DNA from: Cucumis sativus
Taxonomy: Eukaryota > Streptophyta > Magnoliopsida > Cucurbitales > Cucurbitaceae
NCBI RefSeq assembly: GCF_000004075.3
Contig: NC_026657.2
Coordinates: 11,532,001-11,596,000, forward strand
Direction of reading: 5' to 3'
Length of the DNA stretch: 64,000 nucleotides
This document shows, in pieces, positions 24,275 through 46,026 of the stretch (its first letter is position 1; each line of letters begins with the position of its first letter). A program made the position numbers and the translations under genes. The notes under the pieces were generated by a model. That model saw nothing but the letters and a program-made list of their open reading frames with translations. It had not been told where the DNA came from and did no database searches.

Positions 24275-27200
24275 ATGATCAACAGACCACTTGTGCTCAC
24301 TTACCTGTATCTTTTCATCTACATTTTGCTGTCATCTGGAGTTATTTTGTATAACAAGGTATTACGACATCTTTTTTTTTTTTTTCTTTATTGATCATAT
24401 TTAAAATTTATTCCAGTTTTTCTTATTTTCTTTCTGTTACTGGTACAAGTAGTAATCAATGATTTAACTATTTCATAATCTGAATGCAAGGTATTACCAT
24501 ACTTAGTGCTTGGTTGTTGCTTTCTGGTGCGATTTAAATCTCATTTGGTGCTTATTTCTTCTAATATTGCAGTGGGTGCTCTCCCCAAAATACTTCAATT
24601 TTCCTTTGCCTATTACACTTACAATGATTCATATGGGGTTTTCTGGTGCTGTTGCATTCTTCCTTGTTCGAGTTTTCAAGGTATGGCTTTACCTGAAATC
24701 ATTTTACTGAAATCAAAGTACAGAGATGATTGTTAAACGGGGTGTTAGTAACTGCCACTCTTCCTTAGAGGTAGCATCTTTCTAGCACATTTGGTGAGAA
24801 AGTTCTACCTGATTTTCAGTCTGTGACCACTAGTAATTGTTACCAGCCGGCAGCAGTGCTTTAACATAAAGATATTGTTTGTCTTGGATAGCACACTTCA
24901 TTTGTTTTCCCTCGTTCAGTTGATCTATTCTTTTCTAATTTTGGGTAGCTAGAGTAATTAATCTTGATTCCAAATCTGCAGGTTGTATCTCCAGTCAAAA
25001 TGACTTTTGAAATGTAAGTTCTCTGAGAAATGAAAAGCTGCCGTATAATTGATTTTTGTAGATTATTTTTGTGTAATTTTATTTTCCTGTTTTTAATGCA
25101 TGATATCCTTGTTGGACAGATATGCAACGTGTGTCATCCCAATTAGTGCATTTTTTGCGTCAAGTCTTTGGTAAGTAAAGTTGTAAAATTAGTTTCTTGT
25201 AATAGTACTTGAAAGTGTTCTCATTTTGGAGGGAGGGATATCATTTCTATGTTTTTTAAATGATGCTTATCTGATACATTGGTTTGATGGATTATAATGT
25301 TCTCTTGGTGATGGCTAATAATATTGTGATTTTTTTGTTTATTATTTCTAGCTCAAGCAAACATGTTTGCTTGTATCATGCTTCAGTGTTTTCTTGTGTC
25401 TTTCATTAGATAAGTTAGCCTATGATCTAAGGTTTTATGCAGATGTTTCTAACTCGCTGTAATATTTAAATATGCTAAAAACTGTAATGGTTTTTATACT
25501 ATTTTGTAGCTGTTTGAGGATCAGTGCCTTATGCGTGATGTTCATAATGGCTTGAGTATTACTAACTACTAACTATTGATATTTCAGGTTTGGTAACACT
25601 GCCTACTTGCATATATCTGTGGCCTTCATTCAGATGCTTAAGGCTTTAAGTATGTGGTTTAACTTCATATTTTTTCTTACTTCTAGGATGAGTCTCCTTA
25701 GAAATGTAAAATAATTAGATGTAAATTTGACATTTCAGTGCCAGTAGCCACATTTTTAATGGCTGTTGTGTGTGGTACCGACAAGTTAAGGTGTGACGTT
25801 TTCTTCAACATGGTGCTGGTCAGTGTTGGGGTTGTCGTTTCCTCATATGGAGAGATACATTTTAATGTAGTAGGTACAGTTTACCAGGTCACAGGTATCT
25901 TTGCAGAAGCTCTCAGGCTGGTCTTGACGCAGGTCCTTCTGCAAAAGAAGGGCTTGACTCTAAATCCTATCACCAGCTTATATTACATTGCTCCATGCAG
26001 GTATAGTGTAGTTTGATGTCTCTTGACTGGAAGTAGTTGTGTCATTGGCAATGGATTCTTAAGATTTCGTTATGATCAAATAGTAACAATCTTTCATTGG
26101 AAAATGATTTAACATAAATGCCACAGAAGCTAGAGTGTAAGATTTAGCCGCTCAGATTTTGCTTTTGATGAATGCAGTTTTGTTTTCCTGTTTGTTCCTT
26201 GGTACCTGTTGGAGAAGCCAGAGATGCAAGTTACTCAAATTCAGTTCAACTTTTGGATCTTTTTTTCAAATGCATTGTGTGCCTTGGCGTTGAACTTCTC
26301 TATTTTCTTAGTAATTGGAAGAACTGGAGCAGTTACTATTCGAGTTGCTGGTGTTCTCAAGGACTGGATTCTAATAGCCCTCTCAACAGTCATATTTCCT
26401 GAATCTACTATAACAGGGCTGAATATCATTGGCTATGCAATCGGTAATCCTTGTCAAGTGGAGGGTCTTTTTTTCCTATTATGTTTTACTAGTTTAACGT
26501 GATTTTCAATTTACCAATCCTTCTCTCAATGCAGCATTGTGTGGGGTCCTCATGTATAATTACATAAAGGTCAAGGATGTTCGGGCATCTCAATTATCTT
26601 CTGACAGCCTTCCAGACAGAATCGTAAAGGTAAGAGTTCAGTTTAATAGAAAGTAGTTCGAGTTCCTTCTCCCCTTGATGCAATGTTTCATAAGTTTTAT
26701 ATGGTACTGAATGTTTCAATCTTTTTATGTGGGAGACAATTAGGTACAAAATAAGTTAGGAGAGATGGGAAAGTAAGACATCAACCAGTGTGAAAAAATT
26801 TGATAACACCCCCCTCACAGCTTCTCCATCTCTAAGTATTAGCAAAGATCATTTGATTTTTTTCCATTAGCGATTCGCAAAGTATAGCCACAACAACTAA
26901 CTCCCACAAGATTCTAGTTTTTCATTTGAAGGGGTATCCACATAAGAGCTGCTCCATACATAGTCACGTATATTCCTATGTTTATAACTCTAGGGCACAA
27001 AGGTATAACCTATTAAATGGATCATGTTCAGGAAAGGGTGGTTTTTTATGGCGTGCTGGGGTGTGCTATTATTTAGGATATTTGGGGCGAGAGGAATGAT
27101 AGAGTGTTTAGGGGTAGAAAGGGGGCATATGTGAGATATGGTTGTTGGCTAGATATCACGTGTCACTTTGGGCTTCGGTTTTGAAGATCTTTCGTAACTA

Positions 27201-31773: not shown

Positions 31774-34596
31774 ATGGCGGCTAAAAAGCTCTGTGAAACC
31801 TTCTCCAAGACCCTGATCGACGAGGTTCAGAAATGGGGTTGTATGAAACAGACTGGGGTTAGTTTGAGATACATGATGGAGTTTGGTTCCAAGCCCACTC
31901 CTAAAAATTTGCTCATTTCTGCTCAGTTTCTTCATAAGGAGCTTCCAATTCGGATTGCTAGAAGAGCAATTGAACTTGAGAATCTGCCTTATGGCCTCTC
32001 TATGAAACCTGCTGTTTTGAAGGTCCCTTTTCTGTACTTTTCTGCTTTGCAGTTTGTTGAATTGGTTGCTGTCGGTTGTGCCTGAAAAATTAATGAGGAT
32101 TTTCTGACTTAGAAATTAGGAATTTGGTAATTGATGTAATGATTTTGTTTCTGTTTCACTTGCTTTTTTATCATTATTTCTTGTGAATTTTCTTCAAAAG
32201 ACTCTATTTGTGTTTGTTTGTTTGAACTTTCCAATTTAGGATGTACATATTTTTTAGCGTTCATGTTTAATTTAATCGTACAGTGAGTCAGTGAGAGGAA
32301 TTGGCTCAATTTTGTACAATTATTTTATCCCCCATTCTTTGTTGTTGTTGAAGATTCCTTTTCGCCTTTTTATTCAAACATCCTAAGTGCTTTTGCCGGT
32401 TAACTGTTTCCTGCTACTGCTTATTTTTTTAATTGTTTTTTAAGAGTTCGAACCTTTTTTGTATTTCATATAAAGTCTACATTTGGGGCATGTTTTTTTC
32501 TAGAAAAGTACTTGCATGATTATTGAAATGTTTAAATGTTTAGAGGTTGTTTGGGAACTGTCATCAAAACATTTTTTTCCATTTAAGAATAAAATTTCTG
32601 GGGAACTGTTTATGGTAATTGTTTTAAAAGTTGTTTTGAGTTTTTTCTGTTTCAGAAAAATGAACTTATTGTTCATCTCAAGAGTCAGTATCATGTTTTT
32701 GTGAATAATGATTTCAACGTATGCAAGAATGTGATCACCTAGTCAGCATCTAGTATCCTACGAATCTTTTTACACCCAGTAAGGTCAAGCGGGTTGTTTT
32801 GTGAGATTAGTCAAGGTGCTGATAAATTAGCTTGGACACTCATAGATCTAAAAAATAACGTACACAATACGATGAACTTGTACAAGTTCTTTAACCACAC
32901 AATCTTTGAAAAAAAAAAACTATTTTTGAACCGGTTTTCCAATCAGCAGTCCATTTGTTTCTTATTAGAGTTTCATGGTGTATGAAAAGGCAGAGTTCTG
33001 TATATTATATTTTTTAGCACAACCTTTTACTGGTTTTACTTCTCCATAAATGTTTTGTTAGGTTCGTGACTGGTATGTGGATTCTTTTCGTGACCTTCGG
33101 TCCTTTCCCGAGATAAAGAGTTCGGATGACGAAAAAGAGTTTACACAAATGATAAAGGCAATTAAGGTGAGACACAACAACGTGGTTCCAACGATGGCTT
33201 TAGGTGTTAAACAGCTGAAGAAAGGCCTAGGTCTGAATAATGTTGGGTCTCTAGATCTCCATGAGATTCATCAGTTTTTGGATCGCTTCTACATGTCAAG
33301 AATTGGGATTCGCATGCTCATTGGTTGGTTAAATTTCAATTTCCCTCAAGTCCCATCTTTCCTGTCTTCCCCTTTCCTTTCTCTATTTGTTTATAAAGTT
33401 TCTTTGATGGATGGGGAAAAATCTAAATCATGACATTTTTTTGCAATTTCTAGATGCTTAACATGTGGTTTGTGGAATTTGATTGTTACTCAGGGCAGCA
33501 TGTGGAATTACACAATCCCAATCCTCCTCCTGACTGTGTAGGATATATACACACAAAAATGTCCCCTGTGAACGTTGCGCAGAGCGCCAGTGAGGATGCT
33601 CGTGCAATCTGTTTACGTGAGTATGGTAGTGCTCCTGATATCAAAATCTATGGAGATCCGAGTTTCACATTTCCGTAAGTTCTTCATTTTGACTTTGCTC
33701 ACATGCTGTTTGCATTAAAGTTTCACTTCACTAGACTCTCAATCTCTCTGTTCTGAGTGTTTTTATCGATGTTTATGCCACTTTTCGCCCGTGTGACATG
33801 AATATTGATTTAAATCTTTCATCTGTTGTTTACTTTTTCAGTTACGTTCCAACACACTTGCATCTTATGGTCTTTGAGTTGGTTAAGAACTCATTACGTG
33901 CTGTGCAAGAGAGTTTCATGGATTCTGATAAAGTTCCACCTCCAGTTAGAATCATAGTTGCTGATGGAATTGAGGATGTCACTATTAAGGTATTGTTGTT
34001 ATGCATCACCAAAGTTAATTCAATGGAGTTTCAATATAACTGTTTATATGACTGACTTGTAGGTATCGGATGAGGGTGGTGGCATACCCCGAAGCGGCCT
34101 TCCCAGAATTTTCACTTACCTCTACACCACTGCAAAAGAACCTCTGGAGGAACATCCAGATCTGGGAACAACGGATTTGGTGACAATGGCTGGATATGGT
34201 TATGGTCTTCCAATAAGTCGTCTGTACGCTCGTTATTTTGGTGGAGATCTGCAAGTGATCTCCATGGAAGGATATGGTAAATAGATTCTTGCTGTTTTAG
34301 TTTTCGTCGTTGATTTCAGTATTTTCAAGCACATAGTACCATAATACTGTTTCGTCGACACGACTCACCTATTTCATTGCTTCCAAACATTTCTCGGAAC
34401 AAATAAAACTTAAAATTCCTTCATCATTGAGCTGAAATTCTTAATCCTAGTGAGTTTTGAGACATTAATTTCTAACTGCCATCTCTCCACAGTCGTTTTC
34501 AGGATGGTTATAACCGTTGTTATTGAACTGTAAACAGGAACAGATGCATATCTTCACCTGTCTCGTCTGGGGGATTCACAAGAGCCTCTCCCATGA
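31774..34596 (+). CDS. PDK: Mitochondrial pyruvate dehydrogenase kinase
   Basis: Six exons: 31774-32022, 33062-33323, 33494-33674, 33842-33989, 34063-34276, 34538-34596 (1113 nt, 370 aa). PDK phosphorylates serine of the PDH E1-alpha subunit in the mitochondrial matrix and switches the complex off. An N-terminal BCDHK/PDK helical domain (about 15-190) carries [19 protein letters not shown]. It is followed by a GHKL ATPase domain: N-box [10 protein letters not shown] with Asn at 247, G1 box [10 protein letters not shown] at 283-292, and G2 box GYGYGLP at 324-330, then ARYFGGDLQ. These are the ATP-binding residues of the family, all intact. The length matches plant PDKs. Intron 1 is about 1 kb. 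Confidence 0.97.
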
Positions 34597-36727
34597 GGAA
34601 AAAGGAAAGAATCACATTCCTTTGAAGATTTGGTATTGAAATTCATCCAATTGTAATAACTTGGAATTTAGTAACCTTATTCCCTTTCCATTGTATATTC
34701 TGCCTTTTGCTTTATGCAAAAAGAGCATTTTCTCACTGTGATTTGCTATTCCTTTGGGCTACTTTCAGGTATTTCTTTAAAAGCTTTTTCGTTTTCCTTT
34801 CCCCTCTGATGATAAATAGCTTTTCCACTTCACCCCAAGAAGTGAAATGCTTTTATATCGAACACATGAGTTCGAACTTTCGACCTTTAACAAGTGAATA
34901 CGTGCTCACTTTTGACAAGGTAGAAAGAAAGTTTTACATTACCAAATTTGTCATTTAACTATAGCTTAAGAAATAAGGTTGGAGTTGATGCATGTGTCGA
35001 AACACAAACCGAATTACCTAATCTTATGACCCTTAGATTCGATCTATTTTATGAGTTTTGTCTTAATTATAAAATTAGAAGTTGGTTTCCCCACTTCTTT
35101 TCAACTAACATGGCGGCTCACGTTGGTAGGCTACGCTATAAATCTCCCCTTCCATAGATTGTCTCATTTAATTAAAATATTTAATATCTCATTTGTTTCC
35201 TACTTTAAACACTTTTCAATTTTAATTTTAGTCCCTATTTTTTCAATAGAAATGTATTGTCTTCCCATTTTTATTATAAAAAAAATTTAAAAACATATGA
35301 ATTAAAATATCTAGATCGTAGTTTAACTAATCTTATAGAGAGACTCGTGTTATCTTAACTTAATATTATTTCGTTAATAAAAGATTTACAAAGATATCAT
35401 ATTATCTTAAAGTAATCTTGTATATTAAGGATACTTATTATACATGTTGTAATTATAGTAAAGGTATGAATCTCAAATAATAATAATTAAATGAGAATAA
35501 GAAATTTGTTGCCACATCAGCATGTCATATCCATATCATCACATTAATTTTTCTATTTATTTTTAGTAAGACAAATTGGAACCTACACCAAATTCAACCT
35601 ATTTTTCTTTTATTAATTTCGAAGAGACTTTTCCAATAAATTGAATGCATAGTCAGACGCATTAAATTTGTCACACTGATTAATTTGATGGACGTTTAAT
35701 AATTTCACTCATAATAAATGGTTTTAGTTTTATTTCGATTTAATTCATGAATTTCGATTCGTTATAATTTTCTTAAATTTCAATATTTACATTTTTTAAT
35801 CCAATTTCAATGTTAATGTATATTCATAAATTTAAAATAATTAATTAAAATTTAGGACATTTTTAAAAATAGCAAAATATGAAGCTATTTTCAAAATCTT
35901 TTACCTGTTTTTTTCTATCTTTGACAATGCCCACTTTAAAATTGTACCTCACAATTACTTTAAATTAATTAAAAATTATTGACGTTAATGTTTGAAAGTA
36001 AATATTTGATGAAAAATCGATCCATTTAAAATAAAACTCAAATCTTAAAGTAAGAAAAATTGAAACATAAATCATAACTCTTGAAACCTAAAATACTAAA
36101 TAAAAATTAGATCCAAAACTCAAGAACCAAGCATTAAATTTGTTAGGTTTGAATAATTTGATAGGTATTCAATAATTCCTAGGACTTTCCATTTACACAT
36201 TAAATTTGTCTTGGGCAATTTTTTTCTTTTTTTTTTTCTTTTTTGTTATTTTAGAATGACATTCAAGAGTTAAATTGTAATTCTCAAATGTCAACCACTT
36301 CAATTGAACAAGAACACAATTCGCAAAAATTAAAGTATTTTGACAACCTTTTTGAAAAACTAATAAAATTTATTTTAAATCTTGGCACATCAACAGCATA
36401 ACATTTGTAGAATTAAACAATGCATGAATAACCATAGTTTAGCAAGCACATACAACAACCTTACTATAAGTGTTTTGAGATACTTGTACCCTCTTCTAAT
36501 TCATATTCTAAAATATTGTCCGACTTTCCTCCAACAAACTATTTAGCTGATTACTAATATACTCTTAGTATCCCGATTAACATACCAATCACAGGATTCA
36601 TTTTCTTAGGACTCTTGAGATGCACCCATCTTCATACATTTCTTAGGAATAATAAAACGGAAGAATGACATGAATGAAAGCAAAAAGAAGTGTACACAAA
36701 ATAATAAAATTCTGTCAACTCTCATAC
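34597..36727. other. Intergenic region between PDK and gene fragments
   Basis: About 2.1 kb of AT-rich DNA in which I see no gene. It contains the PDK 3' UTR and simple A/T-rich spacer. A short inverted look (AAAAATAGCAAAATATGAAGC, near 35864) recalls the foldback family. Several ORFs of 70-85 codons here are low-complexity or hydrophobic without a recognisable family. Confidence 0.55.
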
Positions 36728-37227
36728 CTGACCAATTTCACAAGCATTTTGCTTTTCTTTGGGGTCGACAGATTGAGCAATCCAGATAAACACTTCACCT
36801 TGAGTGTAAAGCATCAAGATATCCTCTGTCAACAGATGTAAAGACAAATTGTAAAATTCCTCCACCTACGCATGATAAATATAAGATCATAACATTGAAT
36901 CTCATCAAGTTCTTTATTGACAAGAAATTCTAATGTTCACCTAGAACTTTCTTGAAGTGCAAATACGAAGATCAACTAACAAAACAAAAGCAGTTAAAAT
37001 GAGCAGTCAAAAATGATAAAATGATAACAGTGGAATACCAAACAAGTTGGTTTCTTGTAAATTAAAGAACACATTTCGCCTCTACTAAATGGAAATGCAT
37101 ACAAGTGGGGATCCCTGTCAATGTCCAGAGATGCCTTTTTATTGTTGTAACTTTGTTTCCCTCAAAGTGAAAACTAGAAGGTTGAACTCTTTGCTCCTTC
37201 CTTTGGTTGTTTCAAAGTAACACCTGT
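36728..37227 (-). pseudogene. Villin gene fragment (two exons, broken)
   Basis: The minus strand shows two exons of a plant villin, an actin-bundling gelsolin-family protein. The upstream exon (37227 to about 37073) reads TGVTLKQPKEGAKSSTF, then a stop, FSL, a second stop, then GKQSYNNKK and DRDPHLYAFPFSRG. Intact villins have Trp and Gly codons where the two stops stand. After about 200 bases of intron, a 138-base exon (36865-36728) with good AG acceptor and GT donor reads [15 protein letters not shown], then [16 protein letters not shown]. One codon is missing before LLTED. Neither earlier villin exons nor the headpiece are present. It is a partial, non-functional copy that kept its introns, so it is not a retrocopy. 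No gene product is expected. Confidence 0.85.
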
Positions 37228-37877
37228 CTGTGATAGAAACAAATGATACCAAGCACAATGGTGTGGGTTTTTAATTTTTAATCACGCACTTAGGTTTATC
37301 TAACCAAGAATAACAAGAAGAATAAGAAAAATATTACCTCAGCTGGCAGGAATGAAAAAAGAAGAGTTATCAAGGTTCAGCCCAATAATGTAAAAGATTC
37401 AAAGTAATGCATTTAGTTAAGAACCTAAAAGTACTCTTCATATACACAGATAATTTATAGTGCGATAGAATCAATGTAAGCATGTCCAAACTCAATCACA
37501 TCCTTCTAGTAAAAAGGTTAACAAAAAACGAAATAAGAATCATTATTCGTCAGTAAAGAAAGATGTGATCCTTCACCTACCTTCTGCCTTGGTACATTAG
37601 AATATAGATATACCAGTAACAGTCAGGACAATGGCCATTATAGAGGGTGAGAGGCATGGTGTAAAAAAAAGGAAACAATATTTTTATTGATGATATGAAA
37701 AGAGACTACAGAATAAGCAAAATAAAGCAAATAGAACCAAATATGGCCTATAATTGTAGTAGTAAAATAATTATAAGATCCAACAGATCGCAATGAAAGG
37801 TTAACCACATGTATGAGGAATCCAAACAGCAATATTTCACAAGCCATAATTTTCAGTCATTGATTAAATAGTTCGAT

Positions 37878-37929
37878 ACTATAACTCAGACTCTTATAGA
37901 TCAACTATAACTCAGACTCTTATAGATCA
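37878..37929. repeat. Perfect 26-base tandem duplication
   Basis: ACTATAACTCAGACTCTTAT+AGATCA at 37878-37903 is repeated exactly at 37904-37929. It lies between the villin and PRP6 fragments, close to the end of PRP6 homology. Confidence 0.9.
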
Positions 37930-38002
37930 TACATGAATTCACTGGTGAGAGGCTTAATACTCTGAACTTTGTAGAAACTAAATTTTGCTTTTCAACTGCA
38001 CC

Positions 38003-38451
38003 CTACTCCTTACCTAGTGCAACAACTAGTTTTTTCAAGATTGCTTCAGTCGTTTGATGGAAGTTCTCCTCAGCCTTTGAAATTGTTTGCCATTTCGCAA
38101 CTGTTTGGGTTCTGCATCAACATATCTCTTCAGTACGTTTCTTCTGATTCTCGTCAGTACCCTGCTGAAGTTTGAATTTGTAGTAAAAACACCAACACCT
38201 GAAGCAAGAATTACTGCCCTGTTCAGCCAAGTTCTAGCAATGTCAACCTTCCTGTAATGCCAAAACAACTTGGCCACAGCAGCAATAAGGTGAGTATCAT
38301 GATCACATTTGTTAAGTGCAACAATGGTCTTGGTTTTACATCATGGGCAAGGTACCATCTCTATTCAGGCTTCCCGCAATATGCCACTATTTGGACATAC
38401 TTGCAGTGCCTTGGCCATCAAAAGATAAGCTTCTTCCTTATTGCCATAACC
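38003..38451 (-). pseudogene. PRP6/STA1 splicing-factor C-terminal fragment (broken)
   Basis: Read on the minus strand from 38451, this is the C-terminal HAT-repeat part of the U5 snRNP protein PRP6 (STABILIZED1 in plants). It reads GYGNKEEAYLLMAKALQVCP, NSGILREA, stop, IEMVPCP, stop, then KCDHDTHLIAAVAKLFWHYR and KVDIARTWLNRAVILA. Frameshifts follow, with family text still visible in alternate frames (VLKR, VDAEP). The end LGKE plus stop at 38005-38003 matches the natural C-terminus. At least two in-frame stops and two or more frameshifts show that it is dead. Only the last ~150 codons are present. Confidence 0.85.
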
Positions 38452-39372
38452 CTAAAAATGAATTAATCTTAAAAGTCACGTTTATGTACACAAATTCAAT
38501 AAACTATGTACAAAAACAATATTTGTTTTCTCAAACAGAAAAAGAAAGAGATGGAAAAAAAAGAGCCCATTTCTATGTTTCCTATAAAATTAGTCCGAAC
38601 CAACAGAAACACTGCCCCAAGCATAATTCATCGTTCTACCTGTTTAACCCTAAAAATTTCCTCGGAAGAAGAAAAGCAATTGCCTCGTCAATACTTGTAT
38701 ATTTGGCTTTTGCTTTATGCAAAAAGTACGATCATACGAATTGGGCTTAGTAGTAACAAAACAGTAAAAATAATTTTTAAAAAAAACTAAATGAAATCAA
38801 AGAGATGCCTAAAACCTTGCCACAAAATAATTCAAACTTAGCCATAAAAACAAGCTGACACCTGAATCCTGACATAAGATACCCTACCTAGTCAATATAA
38901 TTATAATGTTCAGTGTTCAATTCAATTAGATTTGACAAACAAACCAGGTAATTGCATACAAATTCTTTAAAAGACAACATGCATTGAGAGGAGAAGCAAT
39001 TGAGAAAAATTTGATTGGATCAATTTTGATTAAATGTTATTATTAGTTTTAATAAATACATAAATAGATGTGTTTCTTTTTTCCCAAAGGAAAGATTCCA
39101 AGGAAAGCATCGAAATATTAAACACCATATGAATGAATGCACACAAACACAACAATAGAATCTACCTTATGTCAATACACATGCACGACTCAACTTGTGA
39201 AGGCACTTATACAGTCACAATATGACGAAGTTCAGAACTAATAACTAACTTTAAACAATTCTATATGGAGAACAAAGAAAAAAATGTCAAGCCATAAAAT
39301 AAGTAACCAAAAAAAAAAAAAAAAAAGTAACCAATTCCACTCATCACAGTCAGGTTAAGTTGTATACCTATT
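38452..39372. other. Intergenic spacer before the hAT-derived gene
   Basis: AT-rich spacer, including a poly-A tract (39309-39327), downstream of the convergently read 3' end of the hAT-derived gene. The 144-codon ORF at 38316-38750 is antisense to the PRP6 fragment in its first part and has no recognised domain. I see no other gene. Confidence 0.55.
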
Positions 39373-42300
39373 TTAGTCACTTAGCTCATTGTCGTAAAAC
39401 TTCACATCGGCATCATTGTCTGTGGAAGCACCTCCATTGGCAGGATTGACATCCAATGTGTCTACATCAGTCAAACCAACCAGTTGAAGGCAACCCTTCC
39501 GACCCTCCGATGTCCCATCCTCATAGTCAATCAAATCATTCTCATATGCATCAAGTGGCTCCATTCCAGGACAAAGAATTTCCTGAGAAACACAAGAATG
39601 AATTTTCAACTCCAGAAGGCTGGTAAAGTGCATATCAAAAGGATGATTACATTGGAACTTCATACTACAGGCTAGGTATTACAGATCACATTACCATGGA
39701 ACTGAGATAATCATTATAAAGCAACAACTTGCTGTGAAACTAGCTAATCTAACAAACAACAATCATCCCTCTCCATATCAATTTTTTTTTTCTAAAAGGA
39801 AACGAGTCTCATTATCATTAATATTGAGAAAGAGAGAGACAAAAACTCAACCGTGTATTAGCAAGGGTTTTCCTGATGAGGCGTTCTTTATAAGGTACAA
39901 CAATGAAACTCACTCAACTATTCTAGAACATCTTTCCCAGCTTTTTCTTTCCATCTGTCAAACCATATTATCCAAAAACCTCATTTATCGATGTTTTCAA
40001 ACTAATGATTCTAAAATTTAGCAGTATGGGTAATCTGCTAGTATAGGCTGTCGATATTTGGAGATATCCTGTAACTTTTTGAGTCTAACCTCACATAAAA
40101 ACTATAAATTTAAAAAAATAATTAAAAAGGGAAAAAAAGACTTAACAACTTAAAACCCATGTGGTCCCTTCCAAAGTTGGCCTTAGAGTGTGCAAAGTCT
40201 CTCTCTGCAATTATGGGGTGTGGCTGTAAGCAGAACGGAATAAAAAGATCTCCGATTACCTAGTTCTTAAAAAACCAAACAATAATAATAGTAGTAATAA
40301 CATGAATGAACTTAGTCTTCTTCTTTCATATGGGGGTAGTTTTATGTAATTAAAGTGGACTTCTCTTACTTTTTTGTTTTCTCTAGTATATCCCTACATT
40401 AAATGACAGTGGGTTTCTTACCCAAAACAGGGGGGGAAATTTGGTATTTGGAAGACAGAAGACATGCCTTCCACTAAATGAAGTTTGGGGAATGCAATTC
40501 GTTGGAACAAAAAAATAATTTATTGTTGGTTGCTTATAATGGAATCACTTTGCAGATAAAAGACAGTATACCCTCATACCTCATCTTCTTGCATGCCTTG
40601 TTTCCGGGGTTCCACAATCCAATCATCCAATAAGTGTTCCATAAGAATATGATCAAGAGAGATAGACTCATTAGATTGCTTTCTTAGTTGGCGTTCCCGA
40701 AGTTGCAGGTTGTAGTGGACATACAACAAATCAGCCATTTTTCTCTGAGACAAACTATTGTGCCTTTGACTATGTTCTTTAGCGAATGGGGTCCAGTTGT
40801 GTTCAAAACACAAAGACGAACATGTCTGACTTAGTATGCGAACAGCTATTTGTTGCAGCTCTAAGCAACTGATTCCATGCTGTTGCCACCATGCAGCTAT
40901 TAAAGCAAAAATGGAATCGATGACTACGATTAAACAATATTGTAGAGAAAGAAGTTTGTGTATTACTTTTCCTATGGAATGCATATTAACCAATTAATAC
41001 TGAAGGATAACGGGAAACATACCTGGATCAAGCTCTGTTCTTGTACTAATAGCCAGCTCAGTTCCAAAATCAGACTTTGCTGAATTATAGTCAGAAATCT
41101 GGGACATCGAATATCAAAGCAGTGAAAATTAAAGAAAAACAGGGACAATCAACAGGCTCACAAAATAGCCCGTTCCATACCTGCATAGATGCAGAGATCC
41201 TTCTGGAACTGTCGGACTCTAACCGAACTATGCATTCATTAAGTCCACGAACCACCTCCGAATGCTGCACGAAGAAAAGGAAATGTATCTGAGAAAAGAT
41301 ACCAATGGACCATCATGATTATGCATCAGCAACAAACAGTTATTTTCAATACCGCTACAAAATCAGGACGATATCTGTATGATGGATTTAAGAAAAAGGC
41401 AGCCATGTGTAAAGAGTGGCAAAATAAAGAATTCCAGTTGCTATCTATCACATTCCAGAATGGTCCATATTTCCTGGCATCATCACCATGAATGGATTGT
41501 ATAGCAAACTTGGCTCTGTACATATCATTATATATCGATGAAATTGACAAGCTTTGAACAGAATCGACTTTTTGAAGAACTTGCAATACTGGTTCCACAG
41601 ATTTACAAACATATTGCACCTTCTTCCAAAATGAAGGATTTAATACAATCATCTCTACTTCTTGTCCCTCGCCAGATTTAGAAAACCTGCTAGAAGTCCA
41701 CTCATTGGAGACAAACATTCTCCGTAAATTACCTCTGTGTTCTAGCAAGCACTGCAAAGTAGCAAAGCTTGAGGCATTCCGAGTAACTGCAGGCCTCAGA
41801 AGTTCCAGCCCCTGGGTGAATTCATTCTTCATGAAATTTAACAACCAGCTCCGATTATAAATAAACTTGGTAATTTTTTGGCACTTTTCCATGCAGTCTT
41901 CCACGGATCTCAATTTCAAAAAATCTTCAAGCATGTGATCAACACAATAGGTCGCACATGGAGTCCAGAATAAATTTCTTCTCTTCTCCTCAAGCATTTT
42001 CCCAGCAGCTTTATAAATGGGAGTATTCTCGGTGATTACCTAAGGGGCAGCAAAACAAAAAAAAAAACAAAAACAATTAGCTTCAAGGACATGAGCAATT
42101 TAGATTAGAAACTACTGGATGATTGCAGCAAAGAAACTACCTGCACCACATTTTCTTCTCCAATTTCATCAACCACTCCATCAAGAACGCTAAACAAGTT
42201 TGAAGGGTCATCTACTATTTCCATGGCATCAACTGACGACACAAAGTAAACACCACGGGGACATGAAACCAAAAAGTTTATAAAAGCCCTACCATCTGAG

Positions 42301-43469
42301 TCTTTCCAATTGTCTACCAGAATAGAACAACCAGTAACTGCCCAGGAGGCCTTCAACTCAACCAGGTAAGACTTAATAGTTGCAACTTCCTCCTGTAATA
42401 ATCGACCAGACATAAGTTGGCATGAAGGGCCAACCAAGCCCGATCCATATTGACCAACTGTCTCCAACATCTTATGAAAGTAAACAGAATTTGCAGATTG
42501 AAAAGGAATTCCTGCATAGCAAAAGAATTTGCAAATTGCAGACATCACTTCTTTCCGTGACCTCCTATTGCCTCCTCGTTTTACTAAAGCTTGTTTCTGC
42601 ACCTGTTCAGTTTGTCTTTTGGTGGTTTTCAGAAAAACAGAATCTAACCTTGACCTTTTAACTGACGGTTCAGATCCACCACCAGGGGACATTCCCCTGA
42701 AAGTACTTTTCAAATCTTTGCTCAGTCTTTTGTCACCATCAATAAACCTTTCCTTGCTAATATGATGCAGTGATTCCTCTTTCTCTTCTTCTTCTTCTTC
42801 ATTATCTGATTGCATAAAATAAGCCGATATCTCATTGGCATCAGTCTGTACATGTCTCCTTCCAGTACGATGCCATTTCATATTCTCTTTGATCTTAAGA
42901 TACACTTCTTCGGGAGCATGTTTGCAGGGAGCCACTTCTCCAGGAATTCTGGCTAGATGTTGTTTAAACCTATTAATACCTCCGCTTACTATCTTTTCGC
43001 AGTAGTTGCACTTTACCTTCTTCTTCCTTTCATCTTGAGCAACACCATGTTCCCACCCAGGATCAACATATCTTAATGACCTCAGAGGAGTCATGTTAGT
43101 ACCAACGTTCCTGTTTCCCATTAGTTGCCTTCCTCTATTTCTGTAAGTCACATGTGAACCATCTTCTTCATCATCGTTGGAATGGAAGTTCAAATATGAC
43201 TGTTCATCATCTTCAGATTGCCTAGGTTTCTTATTGGAACGACAACCTTCCAGGTTTTCTCTCATTCTCAAATATACTTCCTCCGGAGCCTTGTCACAAT
43301 AAGTAACTTCTCCTGAAACTCGAGCTAAATGTTGCTTCAATCTATATATGCCACCACTTACTATTTTCCCGCAGTAATTGCATTTAACCTTCTTCTTCTT
43401 TTCATCTTGAGCAACTCCATGCTCCCACCCTGGATCAACAAATCCAGAGGTGCGAATAGGGGCCATCAT
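39373..43469 (-). CDS. Domesticated hAT transposase-like protein, double BED finger
   Basis: Six exons in transcript order: 43469-42141, 42039-41353, 41264-41181, 41098-41023, 40896-40580, 39582-39373 (2703 nt, 900 aa). Two BED zinc fingers lie in tandem with identical spacing: C30, C33, H47, C58 and C154, C157, H171, C182. Each is within DPGWEHGVAQDE...VKCNYC...SGGI..KQHLAR. An acidic run (QSDNEEEEEEKEE) precedes a basic linker, then a DUF659 domain (about 320-480, with SILVDNWKD) and a C-terminal hAT dimerisation region (AAWWQQHGISCLELQQIAVR, LSQTCSS). The usual C-A-A-H-C block reads CATYCVDHML, lacking that His. Long intact multi-exon structure without terminal inverted repeats in view indicates a domesticated nuclear DNA-binding protein. 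A 5' leader exon is likely near 44170-44330. Confidence 0.92.
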
Positions 43470-46026
43470 TGCTACAACACTAGGGCCGAACTGAGCCCAA
43501 GCCTATGGGCATCTGTTTAGAGTTCGGTCAGTGCATATTTGGAAGCACTTGTCACCACCAGTGAACTCCTGTTACAATTTGATTTCAATAGCTGGTTGAT
43601 CAATAAAACGGCACCTAAAACATAAGAGTCAGAGAAATTTACGATAAGCAACGCCCATTAAGCTATTCAATCTTCATTCCTTTTCATCTTGACTAATAAT
43701 ACCTATTAAAGAAACATAGAAAGCCCACATATTGGCATTTGCTTATTTAAACAAAGAAATATGCAAATCAACATCATTGAGAGAAACAATCTCCATAAAC
43801 AAAAGCTCGGAACTTTAGAGGTATTGTAAACACAGCTAAACCTGAGACAAACAGAATAAGAACAAAGAGACTACAGTTCACTATAATCAAGAAATAGAAG
43901 CTTGTCAGTGTTGGTATGAAGGAAGCACTGAACAAGTCAGAACCCCTAAAAAAAGTTCAGGCATTTTCAGCGAACAGGCGATACACAGAAAACAGAAACT
44001 CTAAACACCATAAATGGAATAACAATTGAAAACAATCAAATGCAATTAACTTATTCATTGTAACAATAAACAGAAACCGTACAGCCTTCATTGGCTTGAA
44101 TGCTAATGAATTCCGAGCCCTTTCTGATCATTTTGATTGCAACGACATTCACAATCTTTGTTTAGCATCTAGAATTGAAAAGGGAATTTGATTTCAAGCC
44201 AAAAGGGTTGAGAAAGAGAGAGGAGTTTGACGAAGGGCTGGTCGGATCGCTGGTGGAATCGTGAGTCGCGAGTAGGAACGTCTGGGTGAAATGGGTTTCA
44301 ACTCGGCTCCTTATTCTAGGGTTTCTCTTTGAGTTAATTATAGTTTTTTTTTTCAGAAATAAATATTCCATATTAAAATCTATTAACTAATGGCAAAAAA
44401 AAAAACATAATTGCAATTATACCCTTCATTTTTTATTTTAGAAATAAGTTTTTCAACGTGCTTCCTACATATATAATTGTAACGATAGCATAAATTTGAG
44501 TTTTATATAAAGTTTAATTTCTATAACTATTATATAAATTAACGATAAAACGAGTATAAGTTTGAAAGTAATTAAACTATCAACTGCGGGGTGTTTCTAA
44601 CTTGTTTTTTTTTTTTAATTTGAGTTTTATATAAAATTCAATTTCTATAACTATTATATAAGTTAACGATAAAACGAGTATAAGTTTGAAAGTAATTAAA
44701 CTATCAGCTGCTTTGAGGTGTTTCTAACTTGTTCTATTTTTTTTTTCTTTTGGTGTTGAACTTACACGAGTTTTGCATAGCATGTTTTGAAAAAAGATCG
44801 ATTGTTGATTCCAATCTTGACAGATTCTATTTGTTTGGTATTAAACATTCAATTTCATCAATCTTGGTATTGAACTTACACGTGTTTTGCAATTTTAGTA
44901 ACTCAACTTTCATTGGAAAAAGAAAATGTTGAAATATAAATTTGTTGAAAAAATTATATAAATTTACAAATCGTAAGAAAGCTAAAAACTATTGTTTAAA
45001 AAAGTTAGATTTAATCTTAGATCAAAATTTAGAATAACATATCAAATCTAAATATTAATTATAAACTAAATCACCAAAATTATAACCTTCTCTAATGCAA
45101 AATTTTGTAATTTAACCTAAAAAATCTAATTGTTAAGTATTATAATTTAATAAATGCATAATAGAAGCCATTGATTAATTATAGTATTCTTTTTTTAGTT
45201 GTCAAATGAAAAAAGGGTTTTCTTTTTTTTGGACCCAGAGAAATTATCAATGAGTCAACTCGGTTTTCTCAAAGCGAGACGAGTGGAGTCGACTCGGCCG
45301 AATCACCTGAACCAAAAACGAATCGAAATGGTAACTCAGAAAAATAGCAGCAGAATTCAAACCATATTGATTGAAAAGGTGGAGAAATTGAAAATGGCAG
45401 TTTTGTAGACAACGGAAAAGACGAGAAACGGTCAATTTCACTTAACAAAATACCAGCTCAATCGTCGCCGCCGTCATCGCCATCGCCATCGCCGTCACTT
45501 CTTGATATGACCACTGCTCCGCCAGAACTGGCATTTGAATATCAATGGGCGAATGGCGATTCTAGTAGCTCAAAGGTGGCAACAATGGCGTTCTCACCCA
45601 TAAAAGCTTTGAGATTCTGACAAAAATAGTCGATAGAAGAGAGCAGAATGAAGAAGAAGCTGAGAATCAGATAAAACAGAAACACAAGTGATAAAATAAA
45701 GAATTGGAATCAATAGAGAAGCTGAACAAGCTGCTGCAATGCAACGTTCTCAATAGAACTTCAATTAGGCGAAAATCTTCCAAAACGGTTAAGCAAACAG
45801 TGATGAAATTTTGAAATGTACATAGAAATTCATTCAGACTTCCCTCAATTGATTGTTCATCACTACATTGATCCAGAAGGTTTCTGTGGATGGTTTGATA
45901 GTACCTCAACGCTTTGTATTCTACTGAATCTTCGAGGAACTCAATTGAATGAGACAGTTGAACAAGACTACCCTCTACAGTTAGTTTCCTTAATCAACTA
46001 CCTTCGTTATGGAGTTCGATTCCCCC
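43470..46026. other. Upstream region of hAT-derived gene plus spacer
   Basis: From 43470 to about 44340 is the probable 5' UTR and leader intron of the hAT-derived gene; near 44310-44325 is AAACCCTAGAAT on the minus strand, typical of plant leaders. From 44493 there is a 124-base tandem duplication (listed), then AT-rich spacer. Around 45462-45500 is a GCC/ATC-rich microsatellite. No further gene is supported, although 45660-46020 may be the 3' UTR of the Cys-rich gene. Confidence 0.5.
44493..44742. repeat. 124-base tandem duplication
   Basis: Copy 1 (44493-44616) and copy 2 (44617 to about 44742) both begin AATTTGAGTTTTATATAAA and share CTATAACTATTATATAA, then TTAACGATAAAACGAGTATA, AGTTTGAAAGTAATTAAACT and GTGTTTCTAACTTGTT. 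There are only a handful of differences, so the duplication is fairly recent. A second, weaker repeat follows: TTGAACTTACACGAGTTTTGCA near 44755 and TTGAACTTACACGTGTTTTGCA near 44870. Confidence 0.9.

What the first reader, a model, noticed from the sequence alone, without database searches (positions are those of the whole stretch)
36728..38451. Villin and PRP6/STA1 fragments side by side: captured or transduplicated gene pieces
Two unrelated cellular genes are represented by broken pieces within 1.8 kb, both on the minus strand. One is an internal part of villin with its introns, the other the C-terminal end of a U5 snRNP protein. They lie just 3' of a hAT-derived gene. Seen: stops and frameshifts, retained splice sites. 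Known: Helitrons and Pack-MULEs pick up such genomic fragments, with introns, from several loci. Inferred: a single element may have brought both. Alternatively they are two independent segmental duplications.
Basis: partly seen in the sequence, partly recalled or inferred. Interest (0 to 1): 0.8.

Follow-up and report, generated by a model that had tools for sequence, protein, structure and literature searches.

The report
Copied STA1 tail with villin scrap
A dead stretch of plant DNA that looks like two separately captured gene pieces is most likely one decayed copy of the far end of a splicing gene on another chromosome, which already had a broken villin piece beside it; this is ordinary genome debris.

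Summary
In detail: window 36612-38447 (minus strand) contains a broken C-terminal end of STA1/PRP6 followed by an internal villin piece with its introns. The "two captures at this site" reading does not hold. 36731-38447 aligns, in order and orientation, with one place on contig C6 (6868459-6870929). There an open STA1 frame (1028 codons stop to stop) is followed by the same 3' flank and the same villin piece, joined at the same point. So the villin scrap came to lie behind STA1 on C6, and one copy of STA1 tail + flank + scrap landed here. The villin parent is elsewhere (C3:32.29 Mb). The differences look like neutral drift; alignable non-coding divergence (K2P 0.28) and no other shared neighbours in the spans held argue against a whole-genome-duplication pair. 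No Helitron-like 3' end or target-site duplication was found. A 13-of-15 inverted match lies just outside both ends (null 0.0036), so a short-ended DNA element is not excluded. The most likely route, inferred, is filler copying during double-strand-break repair. Ordinary unprocessed pseudogene debris; low interest.

The parts
37978..38447 (-). STA1/PRP6 C-terminal coding relic (about codons 869-1028 of the C6 stop-to-stop frame), with stops and a 10-base gap
   Evidence: parent frame C6:6870448-6873534
37244..37977 (-). copied 3' flank of STA1, collinear in pieces with C6 6870447-6869093; about 0.8 kb of C6 between window 37409 and 37489 is not here
36612..37243 (-). villin relic: exon A, 11-base exon, exon C, start of exon D and the introns between
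   Evidence: parent C3:32296812-32297433
37235..37255 (-). STA1-flank/villin junction, at the same point in the C6 copy (approximate to some bases)
   Evidence: the spacer does not align to the villin intron
36596..36610 (.). left arm of a 13-of-15 inverted match just outside the homology end; possible but unproven element end
   Evidence: null 0.0036
38451..38463 (.). right arm of the same inverted match

Best explanation
The region is a non-functional, unprocessed duplicate. Step 1 (follows from the shared junction): a piece of the villin gene, about 0.6 kb with introns, came to lie behind the STA1 gene on C6 (0.7 kb behind it in the window copy; 1.36 kb on C6 today). Step 2 (follows from collinearity): at least 1.84 kb running from the last 160 codons of STA1 through its 3' flank into the villin scrap was copied to C3, between two genes that face each other (a gene I call PDK-like, name recalled, and a hAT-derived gene). 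Step 3 (shown): the copy lost its frame and its changes are spread as in neutral drift. The route of steps 1 and 2 is inferred: the sequence was most likely copied as filler into double-strand breaks (synthesis-dependent strand annealing or template switching), not carried by a Helitron or Pack-MULE. My probability is 0.93 for one copy from the C6 arrangement and about 0.55 for the repair route; the stated confidence is for the whole.
For: Collinear match of 36731-38447 to C6:6868459-6870929 in one order and strand. Same villin entry point in both copies: C3 32296812 against 32296818. The spacer does not align to the villin intron: score 15 against a null median of 19. Among the DNA matches to the fragment only C6 has an open STA1 frame, so the direction is C6 to window. 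Introns and 3' flank are copied, so DNA and not mRNA was the source. Drift: STA1 differences 23/157, 18/155 and 25/156 by codon position (P 0.52); villin exons against parent 10, 14 and 13 of 99 by position (P 0.67). In the block alignable in all three, changes unique to the parent are 1 of 116 exon columns against 16 of 190 intron columns (P 0.004): the parent is constrained. No TSD of 6 bases or more, no Helitron-like 3' end. A 33-column near-copy of the PDK-like gene's 3' flank at 38695-38726 suggests that templated patching has happened in this same intergenic stretch.
Against: The 13-of-15 inverted match outside both ends could be short terminal inverted repeats of an element. STA1 differences are not fully even: 21 on 95.3 synonymous sites against 45 on 366.7 non-synonymous (P about 0.02). 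I put this down to constraint on the C6 gene, which I could not separate without an outgroup. The window's own villin changes are fewer in exons (9 of 116) than in introns (27 of 190; P 0.10). The 33-column patch has 2 differences, so it is probably younger and need not belong to the same repair; its alignment score of 28 is exceeded by some random pairs (top five 32-48), and only the genome-wide rarity of its 20-base core marks it. The age of the copy could have erased target-site duplications. No related genome was available to show the empty site. The genome-wide protein search for further STA1 copies did not complete.
Confidence: 0.6

Rival explanations
1. A non-autonomous DNA element with short terminal inverted repeats (Pack-TIR type) carried the STA1 tail and villin scrap to this site.
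For: Inverted match ATTCATTTT(CT)TAGG one to three bases outside both ends of homology; gapped score reached by 0.36% of 20,000 random position pairs; longest exact inverted match 9, a length reached by 43 of 1500 random pairs.
Against: No direct repeat of 6 or more at the ends; neither end lies in a match to another place, which score only the best candidates; found after looking at the ends in several ways, so the null value is optimistic.
Confidence: 0.2
2. A Helitron with the villin scrap sat behind STA1 and ran through its own end, taking the STA1 tail along.
For: Helitrons capture gene fragments (abstract starts listed, e.g. PMC4778049; that they take intron-containing pieces of several genes is recalled). 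Villin capture and copying look close in time (T1/T2 0.87, 95% 0.67-1.18).
Against: No CTRR-T end with an upstream hairpin in 34.6-39.4 kb on either strand under a strict scan that finds 3 in 164 kb; only two copies of the composite found.
Confidence: 0.08
3. The C6 and C3 places are whole-genome-duplication partners of which one lost its genes.
For: Two copies in the same genome with the same internal order.
Against: No other match between 30 kb around STA1 on C6 and 164 kb around the window at E 1e-5; the 64-kb window against the same 30 kb at 1e-4 gave two further weak hits; 10 kb more of C6 gave three short hits, not pursued. Alignable non-coding columns are still 77% identical (K2P 0.281), which looks younger than the cucurbit-common tetraploidization (named in PMC6856369, passages seen; its age is recalled).
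Confidence: 0.03
4. Two independent captures met here by chance.
For: The two parental genes lie on different contigs.
Against: The same pair, order, strand, flank and junction exist at C6.
Confidence: 0.02

Closest known systems
Unprocessed (duplicated) pseudogene fragments inserted at non-collinear places, as discussed for wheat chromosomes 3B/3DS (PMC3445842, passages seen)
   Same: Broken gene pieces at a new place; that paper names double-strand-break repair with a gene-bearing fragment as filler DNA, and transposon capture, as routes
   Different: Here the piece is itself a composite: STA1 tail plus a villin scrap. That paper argues that most of its wheat pseudogenes broke after insertion, unlike this truncated copy
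Helitron or Pack-MULE gene capture (PMC13317346, a review of gene capture in plants; search listing and start of abstract only)
   Same: Pieces of two unrelated genes, introns kept
   Different: No Helitron-like 3' end, no target-site duplication, no long inverted ends at the homology limits, only two copies found

Membership tests
Helitron | 3' end CTRR with a hairpin upstream, inserted before T | tested here: not met
   strict scan (perfect stem of 6 or more, half G+C), none in 34.6-39.4 kb, 3 in 164 kb over both strands; ends of the C6 copy were not scanned
Helitron | 5' TC end shared among several copies | not tested
   only two copies of the composite are known
Pack-MULE | long terminal inverted repeats | tested here: not met
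   at the homology ends only a 13-of-15 inverted match. Of the inverted pairs, 36217-36245/39308-39336 (29 bases, 86%) does flank the region at a distance, but it is a T-run against an A-run
Pack-MULE | target-site duplication of 8-10 bases | tested here: not met
   no direct match of 6 or more exact, or 8 or more with one mismatch, within 40 bases outside and 15 inside the ends; age could have erased it
Pack-TIR element with short ends | inverted ends plus target-site duplication and further family members | tested here: inconclusive
   inverted ends perhaps, duplication not found, family members not searched by pattern
Processed (retro)pseudogene | introns removed, poly-A tail | tested here: not met
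   villin introns and STA1 3' flank are present
Unprocessed duplicated pseudogene | collinear copy including introns and flank, with disabling changes | tested here: met
Whole-genome-duplication pair | further collinear genes on both sides | tested here: not met
   within 40 kb of C6 and 164 kb of C3; a few short unpursued hits

The most novel reading that the evidence does not exclude
The inverted match just outside both ends marks a short-ended DNA element that first brought a villin piece behind STA1 and soon after left with the STA1 tail attached: an element assembling its cargo in two steps by over-running its own end, with both steps close in time (T1/T2 0.87).
Probability: 0.1. Interest if true: 0.4.

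Novelty: new member of a known kind. Interest (0 to 1): 0.15.

Why it matters
It is a clean example of how a seeming multi-gene capture dissolves once the donor locus is found: a shared junction at a second locus shows stepwise growth of a composite fragment. For annotation, both relics should be marked as pseudogene. It does not change any general picture.

Tried and rejected
Independent captures: rejected by the shared junction. Whole-genome duplication: no convincing other shared gene in the spans held. A period of selection on the window copy: my first forced alignment gave a low coding and a high flank divergence (0.17 against 0.446), which suggested it. Codon-position counts are even, and alignment limited to local matches lowers the flank value to 0.281. 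A remaining synonymous excess (P about 0.02) is put down to the C6 gene, which is not proven. A 4-kb insertion between the near-repeats at 34691-34723 and 38695-38726: rejected, because the paralogue on C4 continues collinearly past 34723, to 34789 and about 34822, so the sequence right of the left repeat is old. Villin homology further upstream into the parent's intron: not found. RNA family in the spacer: none in L001 and L010 at Rfam gathering thresholds. Papers: the listings of searches (6 to 15 papers listed in each, from an open-licence library) showed no title or abstract start about this locus. I read passages of three papers (PMC6856369, PMC3445842, PMC6582320) and none in full.

Full report
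Setting. The window is C3:11532001-11596000 of a genome of 226.6 Mb in 88 contigs. This fits the published cucumber assembly (226.2 Mb, 85 super-scaffolds, N50 31.1 Mb; PMC6582320, passages seen); contig C6 is 31,125,843 bases long. The species is an inference.

Observation. A DNA search with 36728-38451 gave nine matches: itself, four pieces on C6 that together span most of the query, one at C3:32.297 Mb, and three short ones. The C3:32.29 Mb place is a villin gene: Gelsolin repeat in Pfam, villin and gelsolin as best solved-structure hits, and four gelsolin-repeat stretches between 32.2929 and 32.2973 Mb. I did not build its whole gene model, so 'intact' is not claimed beyond the exons seen. 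The C6 place holds an open frame of 1028 codons, stop to stop, with PRP1_N and HAT/TPR repeats, i.e. STA1/PRP6. The window piece is the last 160 codons of that frame plus flank.

One source, not two. Local alignment shows window 38447 to 36731 matching C6:6870929 to 6868459 in pieces, in the same order and strand: STA1 end, stop codon, 3' flank, then villin. The villin homology begins at the same point in both copies (parent positions 32296812 and 32296818). Upstream of it the two copies align with each other, and the window spacer does not align with the villin intron. The junction is therefore shared and older than the copying. The distal ends differ: the window keeps villin to parent position 32297433, C6 only to 32297322. 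C6 also holds about 0.8 kb between window 37409 and 37489 that the window lacks, including a repeat at 6869322-6869530; 40 of the 45 matches listed belong to this repeat. Part of villin exon A on C6 is replaced by sequence that does not align. Only these two composites were found (such searches score the best candidates only).

Direction and fate. STA1 is open on C6 and broken here. Differences from C6 are spread over codon positions (23/157, 18/155, 25/156; 21 synonymous, 45 non-synonymous of which 3 are stops). They are still somewhat denser on synonymous sites (P about 0.02), as expected if the C6 gene is constrained, though I had no outgroup to show it. Villin exons differ from the parent by 10, 14 and 13 of 99 per position, and introns by 52 of 195. 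In the block alignable in all three, unique changes in 116 exon columns are 9 window, 15 C6 and 1 parent; in 190 intron columns 27, 15 and 16. The parent's exons are constrained (P 0.004). For the window copy exons and introns do not differ clearly (P 0.10). I set aside the wider count (exon columns 15, 61 and 11), because the C6 exon A stretch there is not homologous.

Age. Non-coding local matches of the two copies: 879 columns, K2P 0.281. A forced alignment of the flank gave 0.446; I set it aside because it includes stretches that do not align locally, and this choice lowers the estimate. At a recalled plant rate of 6.5e-9 per site per year 0.281 is about 22 million years, near the split of Cucumis from the watermelon/wax-gourd clade (18.1 MYA in PMC6856369, passage seen). 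Three-way intron distances (190 columns) give branches 0.204 window, 0.108 C6 and 0.114 parent. With equal rates the ratio of capture time to copy time is 0.87 (95% 0.67-1.18), so the two steps look close in time. The unequal window and C6 branches warn that rates are not equal.

Not a duplicated block, as far as seen. Proteins from 30 kb around STA1 on C6 match nothing in 164 kb around the window at E 1e-5 except the relics. The 64-kb window against the same 30 kb at 1e-4 gave two further weak hits, at 27118 and 58020. Ten kilobases more of C6 gave three short hits, not pursued.

How it got here. Direct repeats at the ends: none of 6 bases or more (814 of 1500 random pairs have one). Inverted: nine exact bases, extending to 13 of 15 columns with a two-base gap, one to three bases outside both homology ends (gapped score reached by 0.36% of 20,000 random pairs). 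This is the one sign of an element. Without a target-site duplication or known family members it does not carry the case, and it was one of several tests. No Helitron-like 3' end lies in 34.6-39.4 kb under a strict scan. Filler copying in break repair needs no special ends and is a described route for gene pieces in plants (PMC3445842, passages seen). A near-copy of 33 columns of the PDK-like gene's 3' flank, about 250 bases beyond the STA1 end, suggests templated patching in this stretch, although it is probably younger. Its alignment score alone is not exceptional; the rarity of its core is.

Verdict. A real but ordinary unprocessed pseudogene fragment, copied as one piece from a composite locus. 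The capture-by-one-element reading is only partly supported.

Noticed in passing
34691-34723 and 38695-38726: A stretch of the PDK-like gene's 3' flank recurs 4 kb away (31 of 33 columns; one mismatch, one gap); its 20-base core occurs exactly at only these two places in the genome. It looks like a templated patch.
   Followed up: partly
33062-34822 (C4:15.1657 Mb, L015): The PDK-like gene (name recalled; Pfam gave only HATPase_c, in one of three stretches tried) has a collinear paralogue on C4, 79% identical over 34534-34789, continuing past the gene end. Whether that copy is intact was not tested.
   Followed up: partly
37878-37929: Perfect 26-base tandem duplication inside the copied STA1 flank; the C6 copy has a 25-base gap there.
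   Followed up: no
39373-43502: hAT-derived gene with two BED fingers (a 241-base internal duplication, 71% alike), DUF659 and a dimerisation domain; a DNA search with it found no second copy apart from a repeat of about 67 bases near 39780-39850.
   Followed up: no
L010 3323-3531 (C6:6869322-6869530): Repeat of about 209 bases, 40 listed matches genome-wide (a lower bound), with a tRNA-like box by eye; possibly a SINE inserted in the STA1-villin spacer on C6.
   Followed up: no
37578-37599: A 22-base spacer block (TAATGTACCAAGGCAGAAGGTA) is identical in the window and C6 copies although its surroundings are about 71% alike; no Rfam match.
   Followed up: partly
C6:6867938-6868277 and C6:6881252-6881644: Local duplicate 13 kb apart near the STA1 locus, 74% identical.
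   Followed up: no
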